Below, in pieces: positions 11,098 to 61,605 of a stretch of DNA of 64,000 nt (within the stretch, counting starts at the first letter, position 1; each line of letters opens with the position of its first letter). A program made the position numbers and the translations under genes. The notes under the pieces were generated by a model. It ran no database searches and had not been told where the DNA came from. It worked only from the letters and a program-made list of their open reading frames with translations. This DNA is from Melampsora larici-populina 98AG31 (taxonomy: Eukaryota > Basidiomycota > Pucciniomycetes > Pucciniales > Melampsoraceae), in contig NW_006768794.1 of assembly GCF_000204055.1 (NCBI RefSeq), forward strand, positions 969,563 to 1,033,562. Reading direction: 5' to 3'.

Positions 11098-12944
11098 CAC
11101 CACGGGAGGGTTCTGTGTCTGCAGACCGCCTGCCGCAAAGGCCGTTGTAGAACTTATAACCCAACAAGGGTTATACAGAGCTGGAAGAGGATAATCTACT
11201 AATATAAGAACTAGTAGAAGTTGTCTGAGACTGCTCTTCTAAAACAACACAATAAGGAAAGGATCTGTTGTATTGAGTACAGATAAGGCACCAGAGAAAT
11301 ATATCTTCACACGTATTTTAACTTCAAAAGCACAATTTGTATTACTATCAACACTGCTATAGTGTTATTCCCAAATGATAACTGAAGAAATAAGCAATAT
11401 CTGATTGATATTATTCCTGATGAGTCTTTATGACTATAAAACTAAAGTAAATTTCTCTTTATAATTGTAATAAAGGGCGTATTTAAGTGACCAGGTACTA
11501 TTAAAATAAGTTTATAATGATAAACAAAATAATAATGGCGTAAATGATAAAGATAAAAGGGGAACAACAGTCCCAAAACCCTCTCAAAGTATATATAACA
11601 ATGTACCACAACTTTTACAATGGTCAACAACCTCAAAACCAATCAAATCCGCCCAAAATTCCCTAAAAACCCTATGATGACGCAATGTAATAATTTTGTT
11701 ACTAATAAATGATGTAATTTTCGCAGCCAAAAGTGATCGATGACGCAATAATATGATGTACAGCACTTCTTATGATGAATACAGGTGATTTTTTTCTTGT
11801 AAACTAGCTGAAAACCAATTTTTGAGATTACAAATTTTTTCAGATGTGCTCCAATTTTTGATTACTAAAGTGCATCTTGTAGCCCACGTGTTACTGATCA
11901 TTTCCGACACCCATATGACCTACTTCCAATGAGTGATGAGTAAGATATTGAATTGTGAAGTTAAGGTTTTGAGCATTACATGTTGACTTGTGACTGTAAA
12001 TTCGAGATTCACACCAATTCTTTATTTGCCTTATAACTTTTTTCATACACCTTCGCTACTATTGATTTAAAGCTTGTACAATATGTAATCCACTCTTCCG
12101 CGTTGAATGAGCCATCTACCAACCTATTCTGACGTCATTTGACATATGTAATTAGCTGAAAACCTCTATTTTCCACAAAATTCACCCATTTTCTCCACTT
12201 TTCACAGCTGCTACTCTCTTTTTCTTGCTCATGTAATATGAAATCATCCTCTATAACCTTAAAAATCCCGGAAAATCCTCTTGGCAACCTTAAATTCCAT
12301 TACTACCACTATTTCATAACCAAACTACACGTGTACCTCTTGGTTACCAACTTCGAAAAAGTGCCTTTTCCCTGATAACTTTTGTTTCTCCTTATCAACC
12401 TTCAAGATTAAAATTGTCATAGTATAATATAATGTTGTTCTTTCATATTCTAACCTCATAATACCCATAACTTTATTTTTACTAACCTAAAAACCATTTT
12501 CCAATCTTTGTACCTATAATTTTGAATTTTTCTTATATTTTTCTTTATTTATTTTTGTAATGAGTTTGTAAATAAACTATAGTGATCTTAATGAATAATG
12601 TGAAATAAAATGATGTAATGTTAACCGGATGACCAATACATAAGCCTACAAGAGCTTCAATTGATCTAAAAACCTCCATTTCGAATTTTCTTTCCTGCTG
12701 AATCCTGCTAATAAACTGGTAAACTGCTAATTGTGGATTTTTTAATTGATCCCATAAATTGATCACCACACCGTCTGTAGCTGGACCACAGGGTGTCACA
12801 GAATGGTCTAATGCGGTCTCAAAAAGGTTGGGGGTTTTGCAGACCATTTTGAGACGGGGTAAGACCATTTCAGGACGCCCTGAGGCCTAGCTACAGACAG
12901 CCTTCACAGCAGGCGGTCTGCAGACACAGAAACCTCCTGTGGTG
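11098..12944. mobile_element. TA-flanked MITE, split by a solo LTR
   Basis: Without the inserted LTR this is a ~218-bp element. Its ends form inverted repeats of about 60 bp beginning CACCACGGGAGG (left) and CACCACAGGAGG (right, reverse strand), with mostly transition differences. Both ends are flanked by TA (11096-11097 and 12945-12946), as for Tc1/mariner-type elements. It encodes nothing. The superfamily assignment rests only on the TA duplication. Confidence 0.72.
11146..12770 (-). mobile_element. Solo LTR of the Ty3 family (subfamily 1)
   Basis: A 1625-bp LTR runs from TGTAGAACTTATAACCC to GATCACCACA and is flanked by CCGT on both sides (11142-11145 and 12771-12774). It is closely similar to the LTR at 26555-28184 and more distantly to the LTR pair at 30406 and 40019. 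No internal sequence remains, so it arose by LTR-LTR recombination after insertion into the MITE. The strand is given as that of the family's gag-pol. Confidence 0.9.
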
Positions 12945-26554: not shown

Positions 26555-28184
26555 TGTAGAACTTATAACCCAACAAGGGTTATACAGAGCTGGAAGAGGA
26601 TAATCTACTAATAAAATGACTAGTAGAAGTTGTCTAAGGACTGCTCTTCTAAAACAACACAATCAGAAAGAGCTCTGTTGTATTGAGTACTGATAAGGCA
26701 CCAGAGAAATATAACTTCACACGTAATTTTAACTTCAAAAGCACACTTTGTATTACTATCAACACTGCTATAGTGTTATTCCCAATTGATAACTGAAAAA
26801 AAAATAAGCAATATCTGATTGATATTATTCCCAATAAGTCTTTATGACTATAAAACTAAAGTAAATTTCTCTTTATAACTGTAATAAAGGGCGTATTTAA
26901 GTGAACAGGTACTATTAAAATAAGTTTATGATGATAAACAAAATAATAATGGCGTAAATGATAAAGAAAAAAAAGGGGAACAACAGTCCCAAAACCCTCT
27001 CAAAGTATATATAACAATGTACTAGAACTTTTACAATGGTCAACAGCCTCAAAACCAATCAAATCCGCCCAAAATTCCCTAAAAACCCTATGATGACGCA
27101 ATGTAACGGTTTTGTTACTAATAAATGATGTAATTTTCACAGCTAAAAGTGATCAATGACGCAATAATATGATGTACAGCACTTCTTATGATGAATACAG
27201 GTGATTTTTTCCTTGTAAACTAGCTGAAAACCAATTTTTGAGATTACGAATTTTTTCAGATGTGCTCCAATTTTTGATTACTAAAGTGCATCTTGTAGCC
27301 CACGTGTTACTGATCATTTCTGACACCTACATGACCTACTTCTGATGAGTGATGAGTAAGATATTGAGTTGTGAAGTTAAGGTTTTTAGTGTTACATATG
27401 ACTTGTGACTGTAAATTCGAGATTCACACCAATTCTTTATTTGCCTTATAACTTTTTACACACACCTCCGTTACTAATGATTTAAAGTTTGTACATTATG
27501 TAATCCACTCTTCTGCGTTGAATGAGCCATCTACCAACCTATTCCGACGTCATTTGACATATGTAATTAGCTGAAAACCTCCATTTTCCACGAATTTCAC
27601 CCATTTTCTTCACTTTTCACAGCTACTACTATCTTTTTCTTGCTCATGTAATATGAAATCATCATCTATAGCCTTAAAAATCCCGGAAAATCCTCTTGGC
27701 AACCTTAAATTCCATCACTACCACTATTACACAACCAAACTACACGTGTACCTCTTGTTTACCAACTTCGAAAAAGTGCTTTTTTCCTAATAACTTCTGT
27801 TTCTACTTATCAACCTTGAAGATTAAAATTGTCATAGTATCATATAATGTTGTTCTTTCATATTCTAACCTCATAATACCCATAACTTTATTTTTACTAA
27901 CCTAAAAACCATTTTCCAACCTTTATACCTATAATTTCGAATTTTTCTTATGTTTTTCTTTCTTTCTTTTTGTAATAAATTTGTAAGTAAACTATAATGA
28001 TCTTAATATATAATGTGAAATAAAATGATGTAATGTTGACCTAATGACCAATACATAAGCCTACAAGAGCTTCAATTGATCAAAAACCTCCATTTCGAAT
28101 TTTCTTTCCTGCTGAATCCTGCTAATAAACTGGTAAACTGGTAATTGTGAATTTTTTAATTGATCCCATAAATTGATCACCACA
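26555..28184 (-). repeat. LTR of Ty3 element A (subfamily 1)
   Basis: 1630 bp, from TGTAGAAC to ACCACA on the plus strand. On the element's sense strand it starts TGTGGTGATC. It is closely similar to the solo LTR at 11146-12770. It is followed inside by TCCTCCTCTT, the complement of a polypurine tract, which marks it as the 3' LTR. Confidence 0.92.
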
Positions 28185-28281
28185 TCCTCCTCTTATTCCA
28201 AACTGCCCCCAGTTTATCAATTAAACAATTCAATTAAACACTCCAAATCACTAAATTCTCAAATTTTCCTTTATTTCCAAT

Positions 28282-29111
28282 ATGGTCAACACTGTTCACC
28301 TTCTGTAGCTTCACCTTGTGTCCAATGCCGGATGGTAAACTCCTCCTGCCACTATCAAATCAATCCTGCTTGCCAAAGATGCCATAGTCTAGGAATAATA
28401 TGCTGTAAGTCCAATTTCTTTCTTCTATTTCTTTCTTCTTTTCTTTATAATAAGTTTCAATGTTTTTATTTAATTCTCTTACAATTTTTTAATGTCTTTT
28501 CTTTATTTAATTTTAATAGCCTACCCCTCAGCGCCTTCATCCAATAATTCACCTGTACCTAATTCTCCTGCCAACAATTACCCTCCACCAAACACGCCTA
28601 ATACTCCTATCAGAATAAATTTCCTTAACCCTTATAATATTAATTTAAATAACACGCCTTCAGCACCTGATTCCCCTAATCCCTCTATTACTTCATCAAT
28701 TGAAACCAACTTTACTACATCTGATCCATTTTTTGAAAGATTATATGAACATAACCTGGCGTGGAAAACTGATTATATAACTTATCAGAATTGGCATTCT
28801 TGGAGGATCCTGGATGATACAATCAGACAATTTAAAGAAGCAGGCTTTGAAGTTCCAAACATAATTAATAATCATTATCATTTGTTGCGTGCACATTCTA
28901 TAGCTGAGTATGTTTCAAGAAGGGGTGAAGATGAGTGTTTGACTGCAGCAACTTTTATTCCATTCCTTAATCATGCTGAGCGTGCAAATGCTGCTATTTT
29001 ATCCCCCTACAGTACTCCTTCTACCAATCCTCCTAATACTGAACCTCCTCTAATTAATTATGTTAATAATAGTCCTCCTGTAATTCCCGCTGTAAATTCT
29101 CCTTATACTGA
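28282..29111 (+). pseudogene. Antisense Zn2Cys6 accessory gene, copy A
   Basis: Exon 1 carries CVQCRMVNSSC then PACQRCHSLGIIC, the CX2CX6CX7CX2CX6C pattern, and ends at 28404. A GTAAGT...ATAG intron (28405-28519) leads to exon 2 from 28520, which runs into the assembly gap at 29112. Compared with the copy at 32137, one extra base after the equivalent ATG (28282) puts that ATG out of frame with the cysteines. An upstream in-frame ATG at 28173, inside the LTR end, could replace it. Exon 2 is open throughout and highly similar to the other copy. The gene may be broken only at its start, or may use the LTR-borne ATG. Confidence 0.7.
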
Positions 29112-29281
29112 NNNNNNNNNNNNNNNNNNNNNNNNNNNNNNNNNNNNNNNNNNNNNNNNNNNNNNNNNNNNNNNNNNNNNNNNNNNNNNNNNNNNNNNNN
29201 NNNNNNNNNNNNNNNNNNNNNNNNNNNNNNNNNNNNNNNNNNNNNNNNNNNNNNNNNNNNNNNNNNNNNNNNNNNNNNNNN
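29112..29281. other. Assembly gap (170 N)
   Basis: A run of N that hides the C-terminus of the copy-A accessory gene. Confidence 1.
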
Positions 29282-29406
29282 ATATCCTTATTTTTTTTTT
29301 TTAAAAATCTTATCTTATATTTTTATTCTGGACTTTTAATTCTTTTAATCTTTTATATATATTTTTATCTTTTGAAATTAATAATATTATTAGTGGTAAT
29401 TTATAC

Positions 29407-30405
29407 TTATAATTGCGCCTCTTCCTCTTCAATGCCCACCTCCTCTTCTTCTGCTAATATTGCCACACCCCTAGGATAAAATCTTTTAACATGTTCAGCA
29501 GCATATTTTCGCGATAATTGAGTTCCATCTAACTCTTCTAGAATATAAGCACCTCCCATATGTTGTTCAACTACCTTATAAGGCCCATTCCATCTATTTT
29601 TAAATAATTTTCCCCATTGAAATTCTAAACTTTTGTTATAAGTTAATACCAAAGTTCCCTTCTCTAATGGATTTCTTAATCTATGCGCATTTTTCTTGTC
29701 CCAATATATAATTCCATCTACTCTTGCCTTCATCATCTTTTCATAAGCCTTCTTCCTTAATTCTTCTCTTCCCAATAATTGTTCCATTCTTGCTTTTAAT
29801 AAATCTTCTCCAGTGTAAATAATATCCCAATCAATACCTAAAAATGTCCCAGCTTCCAAATCCACGGGTAAAATTGCTAGTTGATTAAATAACATCTCAT
29901 AAGGAGATAATCCAGTGGTTCTTTTCGTGGAAATCCTGTCTGCAAATAATACTTGAGGTAGAAATGTTTCCCAAGAAGTCCCAGTCTCATCACTTAATTT
30001 TACCAAAGCTCCTTTAATATCCTTATGACCTCTTTCAACCATTCCTTCTGACTGTGGCCAATATGCCGTGGATTCCCCTAATTTTGATCCTGACATAGCA
30101 ATTGCATCTCTAAATACCCCTTTAAATTCAGAACCTCCATCCACAGTAAAACATTTAACAGAACCATATCTCATTAACCATTCTTTAGTAATAAATTTGG
30201 CCACTGCAGGTGCTGTTAACTTCTTTAAAGGTGCAGCTTCTACCCATCCAGTTAAATCATCTCTAGCTATTATAGAATAATTATAATTACCCGCCTTAAT
30301 ATGAATTGCATCCAAGCTCACTCTTCCAAATAAAGTACTTTCACCAGTTGCCCTTCCCATTTCTTTTTCTTTCTTTGAACTTTTCTTCTGACATATTTCA
30401 CACAT
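29407..30405 (-). pseudogene. Integrase end of Ty3 pol (element A), truncated
   Basis: The 332-codon open frame corresponds to the last part of the element-B polyprotein. It has the CEICQ end of the HHCC finger, catalytic D in SLDAIH, D in TVDGGSEFKG and E in SEGMVERGHKD. The C-terminal RWNGPYKVVEQHMGGAYIL segment follows, then an acidic tail. There are no internal stops. The 5' part is missing because the element-B LTR starts at 30406. Protein similarity to B is high, with many replacements, so this is a sister lineage rather than a recent copy. Confidence 0.9.
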
Positions 30406-32024
30406 TGTAGTATTTAAAGCTCAACAAGAGCTTTACAACACCTAAGAAGGGATAATCTACTACGTGTAATATAGTAGAAGTTGCCTAAAGACTGCCTTCT
30501 TCAAAGAAACCAGCACAAGGGCACTTGCTGACCACTTTGTGATAACAGAGAAAAGGATAAAAGGCACCAGAGAAATAAAGCAATACTGTTGTTAAGTATT
30601 ATTCCCAGATTTTAAGCGCAAAAAAGTCACACACTATGTTTATTACTAGCAATACTGTTGTAAGTATTATTCCCAATTAGACTTGTAGTCTTTAACACAC
30701 GTAAATAAATTTCTCCTTGCTTTTGAAGGGGCGGATTTAAGTGATCTTAGTACAAATATAGTAAATAAATGATGATTTATAACACTACAACAAAGGTATA
30801 AGATGCAGAAAAGGGCGCTACAATCCCAAAATCATCAAGGAGTACTTATATCCACATGTAACAATCTTTACAACAGTCAACAGCCTCAAAAACCAATCAA
30901 ATCCGCCTAAATAACCCTAAAAACCATGTAATGACACAATGTAATGATCTTGTTACTAATGTATGATGTAATTTTCACAGCCAAAAGTGATCAATAACGC
31001 AATGATGTAATGTACAGCACTTCTTAAGATGAATACAGGTGATTTTTTCCTTGTAAACTAGCTGAAACCCAATTTTTGAGATTACGAATTTTTTCAGATG
31101 TGCTCCAATTTTTGATTACTAAAGTGCATCTTGTAGCCCACGTGTTACTGATCATTTCTGACACCTATAAGACCTACTTCTGATGAGTGATGAGTAAGAT
31201 ATTGAGTTGTGAAGTTAAGGTTTTTGGTGTTACATGTGTCTTGTGACTGTAAATTCGAGATTCACACCAATTTCTTATTTCCCTTATAACATTTTACATA
31301 AACCTCCGTTACTAATGATTCAAAGGTTGTACATTATGTAATCCATTTTTCTGCGTTGAATGAGCCATCTACCAACTTATTCTGACGTCATTTGACATAT
31401 GTAATTAGCTGAAAACCTCCATTTTCGACGATTTTCACCTATTTTCTTCACTTTTCACAGCTGCTACTCCCTTTTCCTTGCTCATGTAATATGACATCAT
31501 CTTCTATAACCTTAAAAATCCCGGAAAATCCTCTTGGCAACCTTAAATTCCATCACTACCACCATTACATATGTAAACTACACGCCTAACCCTTGTTTAC
31601 CAACTTCGAAAAAGTACCTTTCTGCTAATAACCTCTGTTTCCCCTTATCAACCTTGAATATTAAAATTGTAACTGTATAATAAACTGTTGTTCTTTCATA
31701 TTCTAACCTTATAAAACCCATAACTTAATTATAAATAAGCTAAAAACCATTTTCCAACTTTTACACCTATATTTTCGAATTTTTCTTATCTTTTCTTTTT
31801 CTGTCTTTTTGTAATAACTTTTTAAGTAAACTATGTTGATCTTAATAATAATTTTGAAATAAGATGACATAATAATGAGCTAATAAGTATACATAAGCCT
31901 CTAAGAGCTTCAATTGATCTGAAAACCTGAATCTCGAATTCTCTGCTATATTGAAGTTTGCTAATAAACTGGTAAAGTAAAGATGATTAATTTTTTTGCT
32001 TAATATCATAAATAGATCACCACA
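30406..32024 (-). repeat. 3' LTR of element B (subfamily 2)
   Basis: 1619 bp, TGTAGTATTTAAAGCTC to GATCACCACA on the plus strand. Adjacent to the polypurine tract on its right side, hence the 3' LTR of the minus-strand element. Confidence 0.95.
30582..30674 (-). promoter_or_regulatory. Twin hairpins in the LTR, each followed by ATTCCC
   Basis: Hairpin 1 is AATACT-7 nt-AGTATT (30582-30600) followed by ATTCCC. Hairpin 2 is AATACT-6 nt-AGTATT (30651-30668) followed by ATTCCC. The subfamily-1 LTRs have the same pair with changed stems: AACACT/AGTGTT and AATATC/GATATT (11350-11366 and 11396-11412 in the solo LTR), again followed by ATTCC(C/T). The equivalent pair lies in the 5' LTR near 40195-40290. 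Conservation with compensatory change suggests a functional structure or a palindromic protein site. Function unknown. Confidence 0.55.
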
Positions 32025-32037
32025 TCCTCCTCTTCTT
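32025..32037 (-). other. Polypurine tract of element B
   Basis: On the sense (minus) strand this reads AAGAAGAGGAGGA directly before the 3' LTR start TGTGGTG. That is the expected primer for plus-strand DNA synthesis. Confidence 0.8.
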
Positions 32038-32136
32038 CCCAAACTGCCCCCAGTTTACCAATCAATAAAATAAATCATCTACTCAATAAATTCGAATTTT
32101 TCCTCAAATCTTTAAATACCCTTCTTAATTATAAAT

Positions 32137-33039
32137 ATGGTTATCACTACACCTCCATCTTTTGCTTCACCTTGTGTTCAATGCCGCATGGTCCATTCTT
32201 CCTGCTTATATCAAATAAATCCTGCGTGTCAAAGATGCCATAACCTTGGTATAATATGCTGTGAGTCTTTTCTTTCATTTCTTTTACTATAATAATCTTC
32301 AATGTTTTTATTTATATTAATTAATTTTACTCTTTTTATACTTTCTTTTATAATTTTTCTTTTAATTCTAGCCTATCCAGCAGCGCCTTCTACCAATATT
32401 TCACCTGTACCTGGTTCTCCTGCTTATAATTTTCCACCTCCAAACACGCCTAATACACCTATCAGAGTCAATTTCTTAAATCCTTATAATATTAATCAAC
32501 ACAATACACCTTCAGCTCCTGATTCTCCAAATCCTTCAATAACCTCATCAATTGAAACCAATTTTACTACTTCTGACCCCTTTTTCGAAAAATTATATGA
32601 ACATAACTTAGCTTGGAAACTTGACTATATTACTTATCAAAATTGGCATTCTTGGAGGATCTTGGATGATACTATAAGACAGTTTAAAGAAGCTGGATAT
32701 GAAGTACCCAACATTACTAATAATCATTATCATCTTTTGCGTGCCCATTCTATTGCTGAATATGTTTCCAGAAAGGGTGAGGATGAAAATTTAACTGTAT
32801 CCACCTTTATTCCATTTATTAACCATGCTGAGCGTGCAAATGCTGCTATTTTATCCCCTTATAATACTCCTTCTACTAATCCTCCTAATACTGAACTTCC
32901 AATAATTAATAATGATCCACCCGTAATTCCTTCTGTTAATTCCCCATATACTGATTATAATTATTCTGAATATACTCCTACCATTTATGAACTTCCCAGT
33001 TGGCTTGATCCACGCCTTTACCCATCTTCTCCTTCTTAA
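32137..33039 (+). CDS. Antisense Zn2Cys6 accessory gene of Ty3 element B
   Basis: Two exons, 32137-32260 and 32372-33039, with a 111-nt GTGAGT...CTAG intron give 263 aa. Exon 1 starts MVITTPPSFASPCVQCRMVH and encodes six cysteines as CX2CX6CX7CX2CX6C. It has Arg after the second Cys and Pro two residues before the fourth, the classical fungal Zn(II)2Cys6 DNA-binding pattern; the last Cys is the final full codon of the exon. Exon 2 has a Pro/Asn/Ser-rich linker (to about residue 100). A conserved helical region follows (DPFFEKLYEHNLAWKLDYIT, then WHSWRILDDTIRQFKEAGYE, then HAERANAAILSP). It ends in a Tyr/Pro-rich tail. It lies between the pol stop and the 3' LTR, on the opposite strand to gag-pol, 159 bp tail to tail. 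Transcription would have to come from the antisense side of the LTR. The domain call is by pattern; the regulatory role is an inference. Confidence 0.82.
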
Positions 33040-33198
33040 TATTACTATTCTTTATTAAATGTACATTGATAACTAGTGAAACATATCCATTATTTTTAAT
33101 CTTTTATATTTTAAATTCTTTTCTTCTATTCTTTTAGTCTTATTATATATTTTTATATTTAGTTATTTGAAATTAATATTATTATATACTTTAAGTAA

Positions 33199-36100
33199 TT
33201 ATAATTGCGCCTCTTCCTCATCAGTGACCTCCTCCTCTTCTTCTGCTGTTGGAATAATACCCCTTGGATAAAATCTTTTGACGTGTTCTGCTGCATATCT
33301 TCTTGACAATTCTACACCATTTAACTCTTCTAAAATATAAGATCCTCCCACGTGTTGTTTGATAATTCTAAAAGGCCCATTCCATCTATTCTTGAATAAT
33401 TTTCCCCATTGAAATTCCAAACTCTTATTATAAGTTAATACTAAATCTCCTTCTTTTAATGGTTTCCTCATTCTATGCGCATTTTTCTTATCCCAATATA
33501 TAATCCCTTGAACTCTTGCTTTCATCATTTTATCATATGCCTTATTAATAATTTCTTCTCTACATAATAATTGTTCCATCCTTGCTTTTAATAATTCTTC
33601 TCCCGTGGTAATTCTTGCCCAATCAATACCTAAAAATGTCCCAGCCTCTAAATCAATTGGTAATACTGCTACTTGATTAAATATCATCTCATAAGGAGAC
33701 ATTCCAGTTGTTCTTTTCGTGGAAATTCTATCAGCAAATAAGACTTGAGGTAAAAATGCTTCCCAAGATGTTCCACTTTCATCACTTAATTTAATTAATG
33801 CGCCTTTAATATCCTTATGTCCTCTTTCAACCATTCCTTCTGCTTGAGGCCAATAAGCTGTTGATTCCACCACTTTTGATCCAGCCATAGTAACTGCTTC
33901 TCTAAATATTCCTTTAAATTCTGATCCACCATCAACTGTAAAACATTTCACGGACCCATATCTCATTATCCATTCTTTTGTAATAAATTTGGCTACTGCT
34001 GTAGCTGTTAATTTCTTTAAAGGTACTGCTTCTACCCATCCAGATAAATCATCCCTTGCAATTATAGCATAATCATGACTTCCAGCTTTGATATGAATAG
34101 CATCCAAACTGACTCTTCCAAACACGGTATTTTCACCTGTAGCCCTTCCAACTTCTTTTTCTTTCTTTGAACTTTTCTTTTGACATTCTTCACATGATAC
34201 CACCCAATTTCTAACTGATTCTTTCATTTCAGGCCACCAAAATCTTATTAAACACCTTCTGTAAGTTTCTTCAATTCCTCTATGTCCCAATTCCTCGTGT
34301 AACTTCTTTAATATATATTCTTGTCCTTCAATTCTTGATATTACCAATCTTCCTTGAGGTACTCCTCTTTTCTTTAACCTGCTACCATCCACGTAAAATA
34401 AAGGTACTTTACTCTTAATCTTTTGAAATTCAGCATCTTCACAATCTTTTGGTCTTATTAAAGTTGTTAAATATTCCTCCAAATTACGCCAAATTCCTTC
34501 TTGACTCCACATAGAATTTTCTTCAAGTATAACCTCCTCTTCCTCTAATTCTGAACTTCCCACCTGTAATTGAAAACTTTCATATACTTTAATTTCTTTC
34601 TTATCTTCATCAAAACTTTCTGCTTCATCTGATTCACTTCCAGGTTCCCTTCTTGATAATCCATCAGGCATTCCAAAGCTCTTTCCATGTTTATGAACAA
34701 GATCAAATGAAAATAATTGTATGTAAGCTACCCATCTTGTCATAGCTGCATTTGGTAAACTAGGCGCATTAATCATTTGAATTAAAGCCTTTGCATCTAC
34801 TTGCAATTCAAAATGTTGACCCCATAATTTTGTTTTAAACTTCCTCATAATCTTTGCCACGTCACATAATTCCAATTTAGGTTGAGAGTATCTTGATTCA
34901 ACTTCTGTAAATACTTCTGACTCATAAAACACGGGCCTTATTTCTCCTTCATCATTTTCTTGCATCAAAACTCCTCCAGCTGCAATATAACTTGAATCCA
35001 CGGCCAATATAATTTTATTTGCTCCTTCACTATAATCCAAAGCTGCTAATACAATATCTTCCCCCACTATCTTTTTTAATATATTAAAAGCCTTATTACA
35101 ATCTTTATTCCATTCCCAGTCCACATTCATTCTTGTAAGTCTTCTTAAAGGTGCAGCAAGGTGTCCAAAATTAGGAATAAACATCCTGACATAAATACAC
35201 GTGCCCAAGAATCCAAGAACTTGAGTTTTATTTGTTGGAATTGGCCAAGTCTGAATTTTATTCTTCTTTTTAATTGATACACTTCTTCCTTTTCCACTCA
35301 CTATATGTCCAACAATTTCCAAAGCTGGTACACACACGGCAAATTTCTTTCCAGACACTGTTAACCCTGCTTCTTCAATTCTGAATAATATTCTTTCCAA
35401 TATAATAGCATATTCCCAAATAAATTTCCTTATACCATTATTCTCTTTTAAAACTTCATTATTATAATCACTTTCAGGTCCTTTAATTCCTCCATCATCA
35501 ATAAATATCCCTGCATGTTTAGGAAGCTCTTCTTGCAATATCCACATCATTTGCGCCTGATAAACTGCTACAGAATTAGTTGCACCTTGAGGTAATCTTG
35601 TTAATTGCAATCTTCCCAAAGGAGTTTCAAAAGTTGTTAATGGTCTTGAAACTTGCGCCAATTCCCTTTCATCATATCCTCCCATAATATCCCCTAATCC
35701 ATAACAAGCTCTACCAGAGAAAGATTCCACGAATTCTTCAGGTGAAGGAGGTATTCCAGCATCTTTAATAGTTACTTTATTTAATACTTGAAGATCATGT
35801 ACTATTCTCAATTTGCCATCACCTTTAAGCACGCAGAAAACTGGACTAGAATAACTTGAAGAGGATTGTTCATAAAGACCAGTCTTGATTCTTTGTCTTA
35901 CTAATTCAATATAATCATTTCTAATGGCTGTAGGTATTGGAATTGGTCTAATTTGCCAAGGTTCATGATCAATTACTGGAACCACGTAAGGTAATCCATA
36001 AGAGTGCTTCAATAATCCTCTTTCTTCTTCACAATAAGCCACAGCTCCTTCTCTTAAGACTAATATAAAGAGAAATAATTTCCATTCTTCATCTGAAAGC

Positions 36101-39100
36101 CATCCTGAAGGTCCAAAATTACACTGCTTCAACCTTTCCACCGTGGTCTTATCAGTTTCAATAAATTCTGGAGGGTTTGGAATTAAAGGAGTCTTATAAG
36201 GGTCTCTTGATAAAGCTGGTCTTTGAAGAGGAAAATTTAAATATTGAGGCATAGGCGCATTAACAGGTTTAACTTTTCTTTCAACTGATTTATATTTGGC
36301 GCCAAAACTTCTATATTCAATTCCTCCTTGATTTTCAAATATATCTTCATTTTCCAAGTTCATAATGATATTAATTTCATCAATTAAAGTTTGCTCCATA
36401 TGGATTTCATTTTCAAACTTAAGTCCATATATTTCATCTTCAATTAATTCCTCACGTAATTCTTCAAATAATTTATTTCCTCCATCATTTTCCAACATAA
36501 AGCCTTGTCTTTCTTCAATTGAAACATTTAATTTCCTTTCCCACGTGCCTTTATCAGGTTCACACAATCTTATCTTCATCCATACACCTCTACTATCTTT
36601 TAAAGTCATTCTTTCACCAACATCTTCTTCAAAATTCAACTGAGCTTCAAAATCAAAGAGGAAAGGCCTTCCAAGTAAGATAGGCGTGTCATCATCTTCT
36701 GCCACAAAGAAATGAACTATTCCATCAATATTGGCGCCTACATGAATCTTGACATTCTCAGCAATACCACAAAGAGGTGTCCTATGTCCACTAATTCCTC
36801 TCACGCCACTTTTTAAATTAACCAAGGTCTGAACTGGTAATAATTGCATAATTTTTAAAGGAATAATATTGATTTGAGAGCCTGAATCAATTAAAGCTTT
36901 AACCTTCATCTTCCCAATTGTAATTTCTACGTGTCCCAAAGGTGTTGAATAAAGAGTTGCTTGAGGAACATTAACTTCCAAAGAGGAATCTGATTCTGTT
37001 TCATATTCAAAGTCAGATAATATAGAATTGTTTGCAACTGAAGCCATGGTTGTTTGATTTAAATTAAGCCTTCTTTTTGAAACCCATTTCTTAACTTCAT
37101 CAGAGATTACAGGTGAGATGGCGCATAATTCTTTAATTTGAAGTTCAATAGCACCATTCATAATCTTTTCCACAACCTCAGAAACTATCTTTGCCTTATT
37201 TGCAAATGCTGGTAATCCTTTGCTTAATCTGTCCTTCACAAAATCCCCGTCATTTGGAATAATATATGTAGGTTTCTTTGTTTGAGCTGAACCATCTTCA
37301 CTCTTATTACTCTCTTCATCTTTATGAATTCTCCTTAAACTTCCATCCAATATATCACGCTGATCTTGAACATTATTATCTTCATCCACGTCCATAGCAT
37401 CAATTTCCTCTATCATATCATTAATTGTAACTTTCTTCTTCTTCTTTAATTTGTTTAATACATCTCCTTGATCCACAGCTTTCCCACTCCTTGTCTTCAT
37501 TTCCACGCCATATAATTTAGTCCCAGCTCCAGCTTTAACTTCAGTACACTTCTTAGTAAATTCAGGTACAGACCATTCTTCTAAAACTCCACAATTAGTT
37601 TTTAATTCATGTACCTTATCCTTTCCTTCCTCTCTAGTTAAAACACTCGTGGGAATTACAGGTGGTACTACTGCTGTATTTGTTACAGGTGGATTGTTTA
37701 CAGGTTGATTATTCTGCTGTTGTTGTTGCATATTATTACGTGCCATAGCATTTGCTTGATCTTCAGAGTACTTAATAACTTGTTGTCTAATTCCTTCATT
37801 AGCCTTCTTATACATCCTTTCATTACTTCTAGGTAAGAATAAACCATCCATTCTATCTTGAAGTAATCCAGCTTGCTTATCCTGAATAACCCATTTACAC
37901 CTTCCCATACTATGTCCCTCCGTGTTACAATAAGAACAAAATGGCATAGTATTCTGTTGAGGCATAAAATTTTGATTATTAATGGCGGGAATTTGATTAT
38001 TATTATTGGGTAAAGGATTATTAACAGGTCTATTATTATTATTGTTATTAAACCTGTTAAAATTTGAATTATTAGGCGCTCTGTTGGGTTGAAAGTTATT
38101 ATTAAATTGTTGAGGCCTTGAGTTATTATTTGGCGGATATTGAACATTGTTCCTTTGATTTGGAACAACTTGTTGATGAATTTGATTCTGTAAAGCATTT
38201 GAAATTGGAATCTGAAAATTATAAGAATTATTTAAAGGTAACTGTAAAGGATTTTGGACGTGATTTATTTGTAAATTCTTTAAATCAGTACATAATATTT
38301 CCATTTGTTGATTTGCTTTAGCCTGCATTCCTCCAATCTTTGCAACTTTACTACTAGTATCCTTTTGAATAACTTCACTTTTAACTCCAGCAATTTCATT
38401 CTTGATGGTATATTTCTCTTCTCCAATATCTTCAAATACCAAAAGCGCCTCTTCTTCAATATAATGATCAACCACCTTCTTTAATTTCTCTAAGTTAGGT
38501 AATTTATATCTTCCACTTGATACTTTCTTCATCATCTTCTTCTTAATCATCCTCTTCTTAAATTTCTTCTGAAGTTCATCTGAAAAAGCCTCATAGAAAT
38601 ATCTTGCCACTTCTTCATCACTTGAATCCACGTAATCATGTCTAGCCAAGTATTGATGAATTTTATCAAAGTTAATTCTGAATGTTTGATATTCACTTTT
38701 ACACGTAACACCTCCATTTCTCATTGTTCTTTCAGATAAAGTTCTTAAGTGATCAATAGAATATCTTGGCTGTTCCGTGGTAGTCTGATATCTGGCAATT
38801 AATTGCTCCTTGACCTTCTTCCAACTCCATTCACCAACTCCCCAACCTTCCATATCACGTATTTCCTCCTTAAGTTCTTCTCCAACAACAAAACTGGTAA
38901 TTTGCCTGACCATATCCAATTCTGAGGCGCCATTTGCTTCAGCTTGACTATGATAATTGATAATAAATTTCTTAACATTTCCTCCAACTTCAAATCTAAC
39001 ACTTGTATCAGAATTATCAATTTTCCGTGGTTTAACATGACTCCTACTTCTCTCATTTCCTTCTTCCTCTTCACTTTCTTCTGAAGTTGAGCTTGAATCA

Positions 39101-39645
39101 TCACTTGAGCTGCTTGAGGCGCTTGAATCTCCATCACTTTCTTCTTCCTTAATAACCTCCTTCTTCCTACTTATCTTCTTTCCTTTTCCCTTCTTAACTA
39201 CCTTAATAACTTCCTTAACTCTTTCCTTCTTCCCTTTTTCTTCCTTAAGTCTTATTAAATTAATTATATCCGCCATTTCTCTCTCTCTTCTTAAATAATG
39301 TTGTTGTTGATTAATAAACTGTTGTTGCCAATCAGGTTCTTCCTCGTGGTCTGAGGGTAATAATGTTTCTTGTTCTCTAAATCCAGTAAATGCTGAAGGT
39401 GGAATTGGATCCTCAGAAGTTGATTCTTCACGTTGTTTTCCACGTACAGTTGATCCTGAAGCAGGTCCTGGTGGTGGTGGTAAAGAGCCAGAGGGTAAAG
39501 ATGTTGAATAATTCACAGGATTTTCTAAAGCATAAGTTCTACTACTACGTGGAGTTCTTTTATAATGAGAAGTTGGTGGTAATTCTAATTCTGAATCCCC
39601 TTCTTCTCCTCCTTCTTGATCATGAATTTGAATGATTGAAGACAT
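33199..39645 (-). CDS. Ty3/Gypsy Gag-Pol polyprotein, intact
   Basis: A single 2148-codon frame. The N-terminal third is Gag: low-complexity acidic and basic stretches, a helical core, Asn/Gln-rich runs, then the zinc knuckle CSYCNTEGHSMGRC near residue 570. Protease follows with ALIDSGSQINIIP near residue 915. Reverse transcriptase has LPQGATNS and the FIDDGG catalytic motif near residue 1380. RNase H starts at ILAVDSSYIAAGG near residue 1545. Integrase has the H-H-C-C finger (HEELGH ... CEEC, about 1780-1820) and D-D-E in SLDAIH, TVDGGSEF and AEGMVERGHKD (about 1843, 1905, 1933). No chromodomain is visible; the end is acidic (EEEEEVTDEEEAQL). Start MSSIIQIHDQEGGEEG is 373 nt inside the 5' LTR. 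Gag and Pol are fused in one frame, with no frameshift or stop between them. Confidence 0.96.
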   Translation of the reverse strand: MSSIIQIHDQEGGEEGDSELELPPTSHYKRTPRSSRTYALENPVNYSTSLPSGSLPPPPGPASGSTVRGKQREESTSEDPIPPSAFTGFREQETLLPSDHEEEPDWQQQFINQQQHYLRREREMADIINLIRLKEEKGKKERVKEVIKVVKKGKGKKISRKKEVIKEEESDGDSSASSSSSDDSSSTSEESEEEEGNERSRSHVKPRKIDNSDTSVRFEVGGNVKKFIINYHSQAEANGASELDMVRQITSFVVGEELKEEIRDMEGWGVGEWSWKKVKEQLIARYQTTTEQPRYSIDHLRTLSERTMRNGGVTCKSEYQTFRINFDKIHQYLARHDYVDSSDEEVARYFYEAFSDELQKKFKKRMIKKKMMKKVSSGRYKLPNLEKLKKVVDHYIEEEALLVFEDIGEEKYTIKNEIAGVKSEVIQKDTSSKVAKIGGMQAKANQQMEILCTDLKNLQINHVQNPLQLPLNNSYNFQIPISNALQNQIHQQVVPNQRNNVQYPPNNNSRPQQFNNNFQPNRAPNNSNFNRFNNNNNNRPVNNPLPNNNNQIPAINNQNFMPQQNTMPFCSYCNTEGHSMGRCKWVIQDKQAGLLQDRMDGLFLPRSNERMYKKANEGIRQQVIKYSEDQANAMARNNMQQQQQNNQPVNNPPVTNTAVVPPVIPTSVLTREEGKDKVHELKTNCGVLEEWSVPEFTKKCTEVKAGAGTKLYGVEMKTRSGKAVDQGDVLNKLKKKKKVTINDMIEEIDAMDVDEDNNVQDQRDILDGSLRRIHKDEESNKSEDGSAQTKKPTYIIPNDGDFVKDRLSKGLPAFANKAKIVSEVVEKIMNGAIELQIKELCAISPVISDEVKKWVSKRRLNLNQTTMASVANNSILSDFEYETESDSSLEVNVPQATLYSTPLGHVEITIGKMKVKALIDSGSQINIIPLKIMQLLPVQTLVNLKSGVRGISGHRTPLCGIAENVKIHVGANIDGIVHFFVAEDDDTPILLGRPFLFDFEAQLNFEEDVGERMTLKDSRGVWMKIRLCEPDKGTWERKLNVSIEERQGFMLENDGGNKLFEELREELIEDEIYGLKFENEIHMEQTLIDEINIIMNLENEDIFENQGGIEYRSFGAKYKSVERKVKPVNAPMPQYLNFPLQRPALSRDPYKTPLIPNPPEFIETDKTTVERLKQCNFGPSGWLSDEEWKLFLFILVLREGAVAYCEEERGLLKHSYGLPYVVPVIDHEPWQIRPIPIPTAIRNDYIELVRQRIKTGLYEQSSSSYSSPVFCVLKGDGKLRIVHDLQVLNKVTIKDAGIPPSPEEFVESFSGRACYGLGDIMGGYDERELAQVSRPLTTFETPLGRLQLTRLPQGATNSVAVYQAQMMWILQEELPKHAGIFIDDGGIKGPESDYNNEVLKENNGIRKFIWEYAIILERILFRIEEAGLTVSGKKFAVCVPALEIVGHIVSGKGRSVSIKKKNKIQTWPIPTNKTQVLGFLGTCIYVRMFIPNFGHLAAPLRRLTRMNVDWEWNKDCNKAFNILKKIVGEDIVLAALDYSEGANKIILAVDSSYIAAGGVLMQENDEGEIRPVFYESEVFTEVESRYSQPKLELCDVAKIMRKFKTKLWGQHFELQVDAKALIQMINAPSLPNAAMTRWVAYIQLFSFDLVHKHGKSFGMPDGLSRREPGSESDEAESFDEDKKEIKVYESFQLQVGSSELEEEEVILEENSMWSQEGIWRNLEEYLTTLIRPKDCEDAEFQKIKSKVPLFYVDGSRLKKRGVPQGRLVISRIEGQEYILKKLHEELGHRGIEETYRRCLIRFWWPEMKESVRNWVVSCEECQKKSSKKEKEVGRATGENTVFGRVSLDAIHIKAGSHDYAIIARDDLSGWVEAVPLKKLTATAVAKFITKEWIMRYGSVKCFTVDGGSEFKGIFREAVTMAGSKVVESTAYWPQAEGMVERGHKDIKGALIKLSDESGTSWEAFLPQVLFADRISTKRTTGMSPYEMIFNQVAVLPIDLEAGTFLGIDWARITTGEELLKARMEQLLCREEIINKAYDKMMKARVQGIIYWDKKNAHRMRKPLKEGDLVLTYNKSLEFQWGKLFKNRWNGPFRIIKQHVGGSYILEELNGVELSRRYAAEHVKRFYPRGIIPTAEEEEEVTDEEEAQL

Positions 39646-40018: not shown

Positions 40019-41637
40019 TGTAGTATTTAAAGCTCAACAAGAGCTTTACAACACCTAAGAAGGGATAATCTACCACGTGTAATATAGTAGAAGTTGCCTA
40101 AAGACTGCCTTCTTCAAAGAAACCAGCACAAGGGCACTTGCTGACCACTTTGTGATAACAGAGAAAAGGATAAAAGGCACCAGAGAAATAAAGCAATACT
40201 GTTGTTAAGTATTATTCCCAGATTTTAAGCGCAAAAAAGTCACAAACTATGTTTATTACTAGCAATACTGTTGTAAGTATTATTCCCAATTAGACTTGTA
40301 GTCTTTAACACACGTAAATAAATTTCTCCTTGCTTTTGAAGGGGCGGATTTAAGTGATCTTAGTACAAATATAGTAAATAAATGATGATTTATAACACTA
40401 CAACAAAGGTATAAGATGCAGAAAAGGGCGCTACAATCCCAAAATCATCAAGGAGTACTTATATCCACATGTAACAATCTTTACAACAGTCAACAGCCTC
40501 AAAAACCAATCAAATCCGCCTAAATAACCCTAAAAACCATGTAATGACGCAATGTAATGATCTTGTTACTAATGTATGATGTAATTTTCACAGCCAAAAG
40601 TGATCAATGACGCAATGATGTAATGTACAGCACTTCTTAAGATGAATACAGGTGATTTTTTCCTTGTAAACTAGCTGAAACCCAATTTTTGAGATTACGA
40701 ATTTTTTCAGATGTGCTCCAATTTTTGATTACTAAAATGCATCTTGTAGCCCACGTGTTACTGATCATTTCTGACACCTATAAGACCTATTTCTGATGAG
40801 TGATGAGTAAGATATTGAGTTGTGAAGTTAAGGTTTTTGGTGTTACATGTGTCTTGTGACTGTAAATTCGAGATTCACACCAATTTCTTATTTCCCTTAT
40901 AACTTTTTACATAAACCTCCGTTACTAATGATTCAAAGGTTGTACATTATGTAATCCACTCTTCTGCGTTGAATGAGCCATCTACCAACTTATTCTGACG
41001 TCATTTGACATATGTAATTAGCTGAAAACCTCCATTTTCGCCGATTTTCACCTGTTTTCTTCACTTTTCACAGCTGCTACTCCCTTTTCCTTGCTCATGT
41101 AATATGACATCATCTTCTATAACCTTAAAAATCCCGGAAAATCCTCTTGGCAACCTTAAATTCCATCACTACCACCATTACATATGTAAACTACACGCCT
41201 AACCCTTGTTTACCAACTTCGAAAAAGTACCTTTCTGCTAATAACCTCTGTTTCCCCTTATCAACCTTGAATATTAAAATTGTTCCTGTATAATAAACTG
41301 TTGTTCTTTCATATTCTAACCTTATAAAACCCATAACTTAATTATAAATAAGCTAAAAACCATTTTCCAACTTTTACACCTATATTTTCGAATTTTTCTT
41401 ATCTTTTCTTTTTCTGTCTTTTTGTAATAACTTTGTAAGTAAACTATGTTGATCTTAATAATAATTCTGAAATAAGATGACATAATAATGAGCTAATAAG
41501 TATACATAAGCCTCTAAGAGCTTCAATTGATCTGAAAACCTGAATTTCGAATTCTCTGCTATATTGAAGTTTGCTAATAAACTGGTAAAGTAAAGATGAT
41601 TAATTTTTTTGCTTAATATCATAAATAGATCACCACA
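40019..41637 (-). repeat. 5' LTR of element B (subfamily 2)
   Basis: 1619 bp, same ends and length as the copy at 30406-32024, with about 16 single-base differences and no indel seen. Confidence 0.95.
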
Positions 41638-42345
41638 ACGTGTATGTCAGAAATGTTACGTTTGCAGGTCTGCGGTGGAGATGCTCTAACGAATCTTACA
41701 TACTGGTCTTACAAAGTGGTCATCTAGAAAATGTGATCATATACTTACAATTGTATGAAGAAACTCAGATAAAGTGGCTCAATTCAATCTCAGATTAGAA
41801 GCTCCGATCGAAATGCAGTTGTCAACGTTTCACCCAACAAAAGAACCATGTCAACTTGTCAAATTCAAATTTGAGATTCAACAAATCAGCTGATTGATCT
41901 TACAAAAACAGACTCACTTCCACCGCGCGACCCTGTACAACTCGACTAGTAGTCGAATTGAGGGGGACATTTCAAACGACTACTAGTCGAGTGTGGCTGT
42001 TAACAGCCTCTCTCAGAGATGACCTGTTAAGCCCACCCAAATACACACAAGTCCCCCGGGCGAAATTTTTTGAAATTCAACACCGTAACTTGCCCAAATC
42101 CGGCTTAAGACTTCCTACAGTCAAGTCCGTGTGTAACATCGGGTTTGCCCTACCCGGTCACCGCTCATAGGGGCCTGTCAGTGTCGGGCCATTGGCTCTT
42201 GCTGAGTTGTGAAGTTGCTGAGCTGGTACGTTCGTCCTAAATATTGATCGCTTTCTCCATACCACTGTAAACATCATTCAACTTCCCCAATTTGGCAGAG
42301 GAAAATGATTAATAGTACAGTTTTTCATAAAAGAATCTAATACTG
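41638..42345. other. Right flank of the Ty3 cluster
   Basis: No gene is supported. It begins ACGTGTATGTCAG. Read in the frame of the interrupted gene at 24972-26554, it gives 15 codons and a stop, which may or may not be its lost end. It also contains the inverted repeat at 41941-41991. Confidence 0.4.
41941..41991. other. Perfect 15-bp inverted repeat, 21-bp loop
   Basis: CTCGACTAGTAGTCG (41941-41955) and CGACTACTAGTCGAG (41977-41991). Each arm itself contains the palindrome CGACTAGTAGTCG-type core. Possible foldback remnant or protein site. Confidence 0.7.
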
Positions 42346-42802
42346 CACACCTGGGCCATTTCACCCACACTACATATGTGCAGCAAGCTAAGTCAATAGT
42401 TGTCTATCATGTACATACAGGTCTGCTCAGTTTTTTGCCCATCAGAATAAATAAATCACATGTTATACCACATGTAACTTTTTCGACTTTGAATTTTGTT
42501 TCCCAAAAATTCACTACATATAATTCTGTAGCTGCTCAGGCAATATTGTTGAAGCTATGTCTTAGTAACAGAAAGTGTGTTACATGCAGTTGAGTTGATG
42601 AGATCACACCAAAACATTGAGTCAGTGTATGTAGTCAATCTTTTGGAAGCTTTTTTCAATCTGAAAGAAGTTACAGCATGTATTACATATGAATAACTTG
42701 TCCTGATGAGCAGATAACTGAGCAGAACTGTATGTACATGATAACCACATATTCACTGAGCCTGCTACACATATGTAGTGTGGGTGTTATGGCTCAGGTG
42801 TG
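42346..42802. mobile_element. MITE with long inverted termini
   Basis: A 457-bp element. The left end is CACACCTGGGCCATTTCACC; the right end on the reverse strand is CACACCTGAGCCATAACACC. Both are followed by CCACACTACATATGTG. Further inside, both arms share ATCATGTACATACAG and TCTGCTCAGTT. It encodes nothing. A half copy occurs at 14003-14235. Target duplication is unclear, so the superfamily is open. It sits about 130 bp upstream of the KDZ transposase gene. Confidence 0.75.
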
Positions 42803-42928
42803 GAGTGATAGACCATTTTATGACAAATCATACTCCCAATCATTTTTCCCTGCCCACTTGGGGAACCCGAATAATGTCTGCAGTGTACGTCACCTTCACC
42901 ACCTTAACCGCACTTCAATCAAGCATCC

Positions 42929-60786: not shown

Positions 60787-60789
60787 TTA

Positions 60790-61605
60790 CACTACACCAA
60801 ATGTAATCTTTACCCGGCGGTAAAGAAAACTACTGACATAGGAAAGTCCTGAGGCAACAGGAAGAGAGCTAAAAATCTGAAAAAATATGCACCTTGTTCC
60901 TAGATGTTGGGGCGTCATGATGAGTATTTTTTTGTATTTTACACGCAGATATTGGTTTATGTACTAACAATAAACGCTGAAAATCATCAAAAACTCACAT
61001 GTAACAATACCTGAAATTTGGGTCATGAGTATGAAGACAATATTTTGTGGTCTAAAAACTTCAATAACTTTTGCAATTCTGCTCCAAATAACTCGATTTT
61101 TGGTTCATTCAAAAGCTGAACTATTCTCCTTCACACTTCATAATGTTAGTAAGGTGCTATCTAGTCATTTAAACACTCTACATATGTTCAAACAGTTCTG
61201 CATGAAGTGCTCTGTAGGATCTTTTTTAGACCAGCTACAGATGTGATGTCTCAATGAAAAATGTAGAGGAAAGGCTCACCTTTTTAATGCACTTCAAATC
61301 GAGTGATTTAATTCAGAACTGAAAAAGTTATTGATGTTTGAAGATTCCAAAATCCTGTCTTCAAAGTCAAGGGCCAAATTTCAGGTATTGTTACAGGTGG
61401 GTTTTTGATGATTCTCAGCCTTTATTGTTAGTACATTAACCAATATCTGTGTGTAAAATACAAAAAAATACTCGTCATGACGCCACAACATCTAGGAACA
61501 AGGTGCATATTTTTTCAGATTTTTAGCTCTCTTCCTGTTGCCTCAGGACTTTTCTATGTCAGTAGTTTTCTTTACCGCCCGGTAAAGATGACATTTTGTG
61601 TAGTG
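60790..61605. mobile_element. Foldback MITE, PIF/Harbinger-like (TTA duplication)
   Basis: An 816-bp element flanked by TTA on both sides (60787-60789 and 61606-61608). The ends begin CACTACACCAAATGTAATC and, on the reverse strand, CACTACACAAAATGTCATC. About 230 bp of each arm is nearly identical in inverted orientation (60790-61020 against 61375-61605), and the centre is a more diverged inverted copy. The 3-bp TTA duplication is typical of PIF/Harbinger. It encodes nothing. Confidence 0.9.

What the first reader, a model, noticed from the sequence alone, without database searches (positions are those of the whole stretch)
32137..33039. Antisense Zn(II)2Cys6 gene carried inside a Ty3 retrotransposon
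Seen: a two-exon plus-strand gene lies between the pol stop and the 3' LTR of a minus-strand Ty3 element. Exon 1 gives CX2CX6CX7CX2CX6C with the Arg and Pro typical of fungal Zn2Cys6 domains. The intron sits right after the last Cys codon. Known: antisense genes between pol and the 3' LTR occur in some plant Ty3 elements of the Tat/Grande type; Zn2Cys6 proteins are normally host transcription factors in fungi. Inference: the element carries its own DNA-binding regulator, possibly controlling its LTR or silencing competitors. A retroelement that spreads an intron-containing antisense gene must keep that intron because the genomic RNA is antisense to it.
Basis: partly seen in the sequence, partly recalled or inferred. 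Interest (0 to 1): 0.88.

Follow-up and report, generated by a model that had tools for sequence, protein, structure and literature searches.

The report
Antisense zinc-cluster gene in rust retrotransposons
A family of jumping genes in a poplar rust fungus carries, on its opposite strand, its own small gene with an intron for a protein with a fungal zinc-cluster domain, and evolution has kept that protein about as carefully as the enzymes that let the element jump.

Summary
The window is from Melampsora larici-populina. A minus-strand Ty3-type element (LTRs 30406-32024 and 40019-41637, 99.0% identical) carries a plus-strand two-exon gene (32137-32260, 32372-33039; 263 aa) between pol and the 3' LTR. 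Public models have the same splicing; Pfam Zn_clus exceeds its cut-off (24.0 vs 21 bits). The gene belongs to the element: it faces integrase convergently in 35 of 35, 14 of 14 and 4 of 4 hits with an integrase nearby, in three sublineages. Two sublineages share the six-Cys layout and a phase-1 intron directly after the sixth Cys codon; two Melampsora americana proteins also have the six Cys. The third has an antisense gene without the cluster. Between kinds A and B dN/dS is 0.088 (pol 0.10-0.13). Most of the LTR and the antisense gene share a history that changes at the pol stop. Best reading: an ancient protein-coding accessory gene, probably a nuclear regulator. LTR binding is not shown, and canonical CGG recognition looks unlikely (no loop-1 lysines, acidic group 1 proteins, no CGG enrichment). 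Antisense accessory genes are known in plant Ty3 elements and Botrytis Boty; I found none described with a spliced Zn2Cys6-like domain. New variant of a known kind.

The parts
30406..32024 (-). 3' LTR of the element (kind B), lying upstream of the antisense gene and presumably holding its promoter
   Evidence: 99.0% identical to 40019-41637, 16 mismatches in 1619; TG..CA ends
32025..32056 (-). polypurine tract (32025-32040) and conserved inverted repeat AAACTGCCCCCAGTTT (32041-32056)
   Evidence: repeat, or the form with one base changed, found in 33 of the loci fetched, kinds A, B, C and D among them
32137..32260 (+). exon 1 of the antisense gene (start codon, six-cysteine cluster, first base of codon 42)
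   Evidence: public model MELLADRAFT_86121
32173..32259 (+). Zn2Cys6-like domain CX2CX6CX7CX2CX6C, residues 13-41
   Evidence: Pfam Zn_clus 24.0 bits, cut-off 21
32261..32371 (+). phase-1 intron, GT-AG, directly after the sixth Cys codon
   Evidence: same position in models of kinds A, B, C, D and of group 2
32372..33039 (+). exon 2: Pro/Ser/Thr/Asn-rich linker, conserved core, C-terminal LDPRL motif
32536..32847 (+). conserved core, residues 97-200
   Evidence: dN/dS 0.048 between kinds A and B, lowest of the four parts
33068..33088 (.). 21-nt conserved island GATAACTAGTGAAACATATCC between the two convergent stop codons
   Evidence: its 17-nt core is exact in 30 of the loci fetched (27 without overlapping ones), kinds A, B and C; one base differs in L032, more in L034, absent in kind D
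33199..39645 (-). gag-pol ORF, 2148 aa (Ty3-type, no chromodomain match)
40019..41637 (-). 5' LTR of the element
26555..28184 (-). LTR of a second, incomplete element (kind A) in the same orientation; ends placed by eye
28299..29109 (+). antisense gene of the kind A copy; frame broken near its start codon, exon 2 incomplete
29407..30405 (-). truncated pol of the kind A copy, abutting the 3' LTR of the kind B element
11146..12770 (-). solo LTR of the kind A family; ends placed by eye

Best explanation
The gene is a long-standing accessory gene of a Ty3-type retrotransposon lineage in Melampsora rusts, in the class of antisense additional ORFs between pol and the 3' LTR. Shown by sequence: position, orientation, splice signals, old age, purifying selection on the protein, and joint inheritance with most of the LTR. 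Inferred: it is transcribed from a promoter in or beside the 3' LTR, spliced by the host, and the protein returns to the nucleus and regulates the element. Activation of, or feedback control on, its own LTR through the N-terminal zinc cluster, with the conserved core and disordered linker contacting host factors, is the mechanism I think most likely. Because the packaged RNA is the opposite strand, the intron is never removed from it and is inherited. Odds: real, selected, element-borne protein gene 0.95; nuclear regulator of the element's expression 0.45; direct recognition of LTR DNA by the cluster 0.3.
For: Public models agree with my splicing for four members: P0001 (kind B, 2 of 263 residues differ from the window) and P0004, P0005, P0011, identical to my models of L033 (kind D), L049 and L046 (group 2). 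Orientation convergent with integrase in 35 of 35 hits (group 1; 44 hits, 9 without an integrase hit within 6 kb) and 14 of 14 (group 2; 22 hits, 8 without) (which was given 75 of the 132 integrase hits), and 4 of 4 by reading (group 3; 5 hits). Hits are pieces; some elements give more than one. dN/dS 0.088 over 262 codons between kinds A and B, pol 0.10-0.13 at similar dS of 0.73-0.80; other frames 0.25-2.0 with stops. Group 2: 0.11-0.30 for the five pairs with dS below 0.8. Six-Cys layout and intron position shared by groups 1 and 2 where the rest has diverged; six Cys in two M. americana proteins, whose genomic surroundings I could not see. LTR and antisense gene share one history and pol another: exon 2 AB|C 174, BC|A 38, AC|B 40; RT region 150, 195, 150. 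Zinc-cluster match. Lys/Arg-rich KGKKR tail in 4 of 4 group 2 proteins scanned (altered in P0007, L047 and L048).
Against: No transcript, protein, localisation or binding data. CGG/CCG triplets in one LTR of each kind are at or below shuffled expectation (B 5 vs 6.5, A 3 vs 6.0, C 6 vs 6.3) and no separate pairs within 15 nt exist. The lysines of loop 1 are missing. Group 1 proteins P0001 and P0004 are acidic (pI 5.5 and 4.4) without an evident nuclear signal. Kinds C and D score below the Pfam cut-off (11.8 bits) and five group 2 models give no Pfam match. The group 1 and 2 profiles align only weakly (probability 6% full length; 28% for exon 1 alone and out of register), so their common origin rests on intron position, six Cys and the x-[YW]-P after them, which kind C lacks. 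Public models P0007, P0009 and P0010 start differently and lack the cluster, and no six-Cys spliced model was found in L052 and L054. Some copies have lost a cysteine (L021, L022, L045, L046). Group 3 does without the cluster. Between A/B and C or D dN/dS is 0.40-0.69 with near-saturated dS.
Confidence: 0.5

Rival explanations
1. The protein acts in replication or integration rather than transcription, for example by steering the pre-integration complex in the nucleus or choosing chromatin targets.
For: Beside the 3' LTR and selected about as strongly as pol. The core is more conserved than the zinc-cluster exon (dN/dS 0.048 vs 0.093 between A and B). Pol shows no chromodomain match, so another tether may be needed (inference).
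Against: Antisense transcription suits a separately timed product better than a particle component (inference). No data on particles.
Confidence: 0.2
2. The protein is a counter-defence that blocks host silencing of the element.
For: The protein diverges much faster than pol from kind B to C and D: dN 0.55 and 0.66 against 0.083 and 0.105 for the integrase part, as an arms race would give.
Against: Most of the LTR diverges with it, so module exchange explains the jump as well. dN/dS is low between close kinds. No link to a silencing pathway was looked for or found.
Confidence: 0.15
3. The antisense RNA is the functional product (double-stranded RNA or transcriptional interference); the open frame is a by-product.
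For: Such a role is proposed for antisense genes of plant elements in PMC7264820 (parts 1 and 2 of 3 read).
Against: Codon-position bias 23/18/83, dN/dS 0.088, conserved cysteines and splice sites say the protein matters.
Confidence: 0.04
4. A host transcription-factor gene recently captured as a passenger.
For: Zn2Cys6 genes are host genes in fungi, and the host has ordinary ones (5 hits at E <= 0.001).
Against: No clear host homologue was seen, though the 9 group 1 hits without an integrase nearby were not all examined one by one. The layout is in two sublineages of elements. Of five host cluster hits fetched, four were readable by pattern and none of these has an intron directly after the sixth Cys codon.
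Confidence: 0.03

Closest known systems
Retand lineage of plant Ty3 elements with antisense TRP28 ORFs (PMC11963269, passages read)
   Same: Antisense ORF between pol and the 3' LTR in nearly all clusters, old, predicted to bind DNA, function unknown
   Different: TRP28 (PF04195) domain, flowering plants, long 3' region often with tandem repeats; the words zinc finger do not occur in the main text
Maize Grande gene23 (PMC7264820, parts 1 and 2 of 3 read)
   Same: Antisense accessory gene at the same place with its own promoter; nuclear protein
   Different: Different protein, plant host; expression was shown there and is not shown here
Botrytis Boty-like elements with antisense gene brtn (Zhao 2011, title seen in reference lists only; PMC8365987 and PMC4227169, passages read)
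   Same: Fungal LTR element with an extra antisense gene
   Different: Boty pol has a chromodomain and its host is an ascomycete; the brtn protein could not be compared
Antisense genes of deltaretroviruses such as HTLV-1 HBZ (recalled; antisense genes of HTLV mentioned in passages of PMC11963269 and in PMC7264820)
   Same: Antisense gene driven from the 3' LTR, product a nuclear regulator
   Different: bZIP (recalled) rather than zinc cluster; no sequence relation tested
Fungal Zn2Cys6 transcription factors (Pfam PF00172)
   Same: Six-cysteine cluster with the family spacing at the N terminus of a protein with a Pro/Ser/Thr/Asn-rich linker
   Different: Small protein, no loop-1 lysines, no other fungal transcription-factor domain found, long C3-C4 loop in kinds C, D and group 2

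Membership tests
Fungal Zn2Cys6 cluster (PF00172) | Six Cys spaced CX2CX6CX(5-12)CX2CX(6-8)C (spacing rule recalled) | tested here: met
   Kinds A and B exactly (X7); in C, D and group 2 the middle loop is 14-20 residues, outside the rule
Fungal Zn2Cys6 cluster (PF00172) | Pfam score above curated cut-off | tested here: met
   Window protein 24.0 vs 21 bits, P0001 the same; kinds C and D 11.8, five group 2 models no match, so met for the window's kind only
Fungal Zn2Cys6 cluster (PF00172) | Basic loop with the Lys residues that read CGG (recalled from Gal4) | tested here: not met
   Loop 1 RMVHSS, RMVNSS, RLEEVD, TPSQQS, FEAGRE and others; host clusters read for comparison have REKKQK, RTRKLR, RSAHLA and RRLKMR
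Fungal Zn2Cys6 transcription factor | Fungal_trans middle domain (common, not universal; recalled) | tested here: not met
   No such match at E <= 1 for the window protein or P0001
Fungal Zn2Cys6 transcription factor | Sequence-specific DNA binding in the nucleus | not testable with these tools
   Needs experiment; CGG sites not enriched in three LTRs
[quoted passage not shown]
   26 of 27 near-complete group 1 integrase hits have it within 6 kb; dN/dS like pol
Retand/TRP28 antisense ORFs | TRP28 domain PF04195 | tested here: not met
   No match at E <= 1 in the window protein, P0001, P0003, P0004, one kind C model or five group 2 models
Boty/brtn | Homology to brtn | not testable with these tools
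   brtn sequence not held
Boty/brtn | Chromodomain pol | tested here: not met
   No chromodomain match in pol at E <= 1
Ty3-type LTR retrotransposon | LTR pair, purine tract, protease-RT-RNase H-integrase order, RT nearest Ty3 | tested here: met
   best solved match Ty3 7q5b, E 7.9e-40
Ty3-type LTR retrotransposon | Short target-site duplication | tested here: not met
   The flanks outside the two LTRs do not match by inspection; the left flank is a truncated kind A pol, so the site is rearranged

The most novel reading that the evidence does not exclude
A retrotransposon lineage encodes its own dedicated transcription regulator, a spliced antisense zinc-cluster protein that recognises its own family's LTR by a non-CGG code. 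The regulator and its LTR are exchanged between families as one cassette, so families can change regulatory specificity while keeping the same enzymes.
Probability: 0.25. Interest if true: 0.85.

Novelty: new variant of a known kind. Interest (0 to 1): 0.66.

Why it matters
Antisense accessory genes of LTR retrotransposons are a known but unexplained class. Here is one in fungi with a recognisable domain type, a conserved intron that fixes its strand history, several divergent families in one genome and relatives in a second species. That makes the class testable: each family offers a protein paired with its own LTR, so matched and mismatched pairs can be compared in laboratory yeast or in vitro. 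It also warns annotators: several of these genes sit in public databases as ordinary proteins (two with names beginning 'Zn(2)-C6 fu', two beginning 'Secreted pr'), which could inflate counts of fungal transcription factors and secreted proteins.

Tried and rejected
Structure prediction: P0001 with an 11-row alignment gave mean pLDDT 34 and P0005 with 9 rows gave 55; Foldseek against PDB gave no match at E <= 0.001 for either. Not used as evidence.

Solved-structure sequence search with P0001 gave nothing significant (3 matches up to E 10, best 0.042); the Zn2Cys6 protein PUT3 appeared at E 9.1 only.

Relatives in IMG/VR and in GTDB contigs: none confirmed (group 1 query only). Protein database: only M. 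larici-populina, M. americana, one short ENA contig and one contig filed under a Rickettsiales MAG, so presence in other rusts is untested.

CGG sites in LTRs: rejected as a signal. The AAACTG..CAGTTT inverted repeat beside the purine tract has no second copy inside the three LTRs tested, so it is kept only as an unexplained feature.

Homology of the cores of group 1, 2 and 3 proteins: not established (for groups 1 and 2; group 3 by eye only).

Simple recombination versus faster change of the LTR/antisense module in kind C: not separated; dS is close to saturation.

Rows dropped: the RT comparisons with L034 (kind C) were left out because its fetched RT stretch is frame-shifted (dN 0.53-0.59 against every other row); its integrase rows are normal. 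In one search I gave 75 of the 132 integrase hits, leaving out the distant ones of about 35% identity or less and one 32-residue fragment. Models with a start inside exon 1 or a donor one codon early were passed over for the one matching the layout.

and one search used a protein with one wrong residue at the splice; corrected. In one search the script skipped a stop in L007 by choosing a later acceptor; that model was discarded.

Literature: (listings; no paper beyond those named was opened) showed no description of an antisense zinc-cluster gene in a retrotransposon in the held open-access library; subscription papers are mostly absent.

Full report
Labels. 'Kinds' A-D and 'groups' 1-3 are my own names for families of related elements in this genome: group 1 holds kinds A, B (the window), C and D.

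Where the window is from. The window lies in an unnamed 98.3-Mb assembly, contig C30:969563-1033562. The protein search returns a 99% identical public model of Melampsora larici-populina 98AG31, and public records P0004 and P0007 lie on contigs whose lengths (1918270 and 467153) equal those of C9 and C71 here, so the species is the poplar leaf rust.

The element. On the minus strand one ORF of 2148 aa (33199-39645) holds protease, reverse transcriptase, RNase H and integrase matches and no chromodomain match; the nearest solved structure is Ty3. It is bounded by LTRs at 30406-32024 and 40019-41637 with 16 mismatches in 1619 bases. The 3' LTR abuts the truncated pol of a second, kind A element (26555-30405); no target-site duplication is visible, so the site is rearranged. 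A solo LTR of kind A lies at 11146-12770.

The gene. Exon 1 (32137-32260) and exon 2 (32372-33039) surround a 111-nt GT-AG intron, phase 1, starting one base after the sixth Cys codon. The product is MVITT...C-VQ-C-RMVHSS-C-LYQINPA-C-QR-C-HNLGII-C-SYP..., 263 aa. Public model P0001 differs from it at 2 residues; P0004, P0005 and P0011 are identical to my models of L033 (kind D), L049 and L046 (group 2). Public models P0007, P0009 and P0010 (group 2) start differently and lack the cluster. Pfam Zn_clus scores 24.0 bits, above its cut-off of 21.

It is a family trait. A search with exon 2 gave 44 matches in the genome; kinds D and C as queries returned 38 and 42 matches, largely the same places. 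Of the 44 hits, 35 have an integrase hit within 6 kb and all 35 face it convergently; group 2 has 22 hits, 14 with an integrase nearby, 14 convergent (given 75 of 132 integrase hits). Hits are pieces, so some elements count more than once. Group 3 has 5 hits, of which 4 lie beside an integrase and all 4 are convergent, read off; one of five group 3 integrase hits (C137) has no such hit. Conversely 26 of 27 group 1 integrase hits (81% identity or more, at least 292 of 303 residues) have the gene within 6 kb, read off; in group 2, 7 of the 10 hits with 66-69% identity and at least 258 residues do. The other three (C17, C40, C141) are undetected with one query rather than shown absent, although a 4-kb look at C17 (L040) showed no evident homologous ORF. 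Of the 24 best exon 2 hits, 20 have an intact six-Cys spliced model; L006 lacks exon 1, L007 has a stop, L021 has lost the third Cys and L022 the first. Many kind A copies give identical proteins, so these 20 are not independent.

Depth. Kinds A, B, C and D and the group 2 models L041, L045-L051 and L053 share the exon 1 layout, the phase-1 intron directly after the sixth Cys codon and, except in kind C, x-[YW]-P as the next residues. L045 has His for the third Cys and L046 has lost the first. No such model was found in L052 and L054. Two M. americana proteins (P0006, P0008) carry all six Cys followed by DWP; whether they lie in elements I could not see. Group 3 elements (integrase 61-62% identical) have an antisense gene of about 275 aa at the same place without the cluster. 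Profile comparison supports the group 1 to group 2 link only weakly; the shared intron position is the stronger argument.

Selection. Between A and B the antisense gene has dN 0.067, dS 0.76, ratio 0.088 over 262 codons; by part, exon 1 0.093, linker 0.12, core 0.048, C-terminus 0.13; pol between B and two A copies gives 0.10-0.12 (RT) and 0.13 (integrase) with dS 0.73-0.80. Control frames of the same DNA give 0.25-2.0 with 9-36 stops per sequence, and changes fall 23/18/83 on codon positions 1/2/3. The five group 2 pairs with dS below 0.8 give 0.11-0.30. The gene does not overlap pol (159 bases lie between their ends), so this is not a shadow of pol. Between A or B and C or D the ratio rises to 0.40-0.69 with dS near saturation, and dN from B is about six times that of the integrase part.

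Module. In 250-base steps A and B are 0.67-0.94 identical in LTR and antisense gene and B and C only 0.61-0.78, while in pol the three pairs are alike (0.72-0.90), with the change at the pol stop. The outermost 500 bases of the LTR are an exception: there A-B (0.69, 0.67) is no closer than B-C (0.78, 0.66). Site counts agree: exon 2 AB|C 174, BC|A 38, AC|B 40; LTR 296, 103, 107; integrase part 109, 98, 73; RT region 150, 195, 150; the short intergenic stretch (16, 10, 14) does not decide. One representative per kind was used. LTR and antisense gene therefore mostly share a history that differs from pol. Exchange by template switching is the ordinary explanation; faster change of the whole module in C is not excluded.

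How it may work. The start codon lies 112 nt inside the 3' LTR boundary, so the promoter should be in or beside that LTR (inference). The packaged RNA is the opposite strand and cannot lose the intron, which explains its retention; between one A and one B copy the intron has 31 differences in 101 aligned sites and 24 gap columns, so only the splice signals and position are held. The protein looks like a small regulator: N-terminal cluster, 37-45% Pro/Ser/Thr/Asn/Gln in six proteins measured, conserved core, and a KGKKR tail in the four group 2 proteins scanned (altered in P0007, L047 and L048). Group 2 proteins are neutral to basic (pI 7.2-8.8), group 1 acidic (5.5, 4.4). Evidence against textbook Gal4-like action is real: no loop-1 lysines, acidic group 1 proteins, no CGG enrichment or separate pairs in the LTRs of A, B and C. 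I therefore keep 'nuclear regulator of the element' as the best reading but not 'CGG-binding factor'.

What is known. [quoted passage not shown] PMC11963269 (passages) reports antisense TRP28 ORFs in 97% of Retand clusters with predicted DNA binding; brtn of Boty is known to me from titles and passages only. PMC12210899 (passages), on rust transposable elements, has neither of the words antisense and zinc in its main text. PMC12477816 and PMC12810828 (passages) held nothing on such a gene. The placement and strand are thus a known kind; the zinc-cluster domain, the conserved intron and the fungal Ty3 lineage without a chromodomain are, as far as the searches named in Tried and rejected show, new.

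Noticed in passing
window 33068-33088: A 21-nt island (GATAACTAGTGAAACATATCC) between the convergent stop codons is kept in kinds A, B and C while its surroundings drift. Could be a shared polyadenylation or terminator signal or an RNA element of the sense transcript.
   Followed up: partly
window 32041-32056 and 28200-28215: Inverted repeat AAACTG-CCCC-CAGTTT next to the purine tract, kept in kinds A, B, C and D (one base differs in C).
   Followed up: partly
window 30906-31655: This LTR stretch is 90-94% identical between kinds A and B, more than their intron; constraint or recent exchange.
   Followed up: no
window 906-3083: Minus-strand ORF with a strong Helitron_like_N match.
   Followed up: no
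window 42929-44113: Plus-strand ORF with a CxC1 cysteine cluster linked to KDZ transposases, close to the right end of the Ty3 element.
   Followed up: no
window 60789-61606 and 42263-42885: Long inverted repeats (353 and 258 nt arms, 87% and 76% complementary), possibly DNA-transposon remnants.
   Followed up: no
L033: The kind D element has about 2.5 kb between antisense gene and integrase with repeated TTTTACACCG-type stretches in both orientations, apparently a nested insertion.
   Followed up: no
P0007, P0009: Public models of group 2 antisense genes lack the zinc-cluster exon and bear names beginning 'Secreted pr', probably mis-annotated starts.
   Followed up: partly
P0003: A group 1 relative (47% over 60%) on a 2277-bp contig filed under a Rickettsiales MAG, starting inside what looks like the intron; probably eukaryotic contamination from another species.
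   Followed up: no
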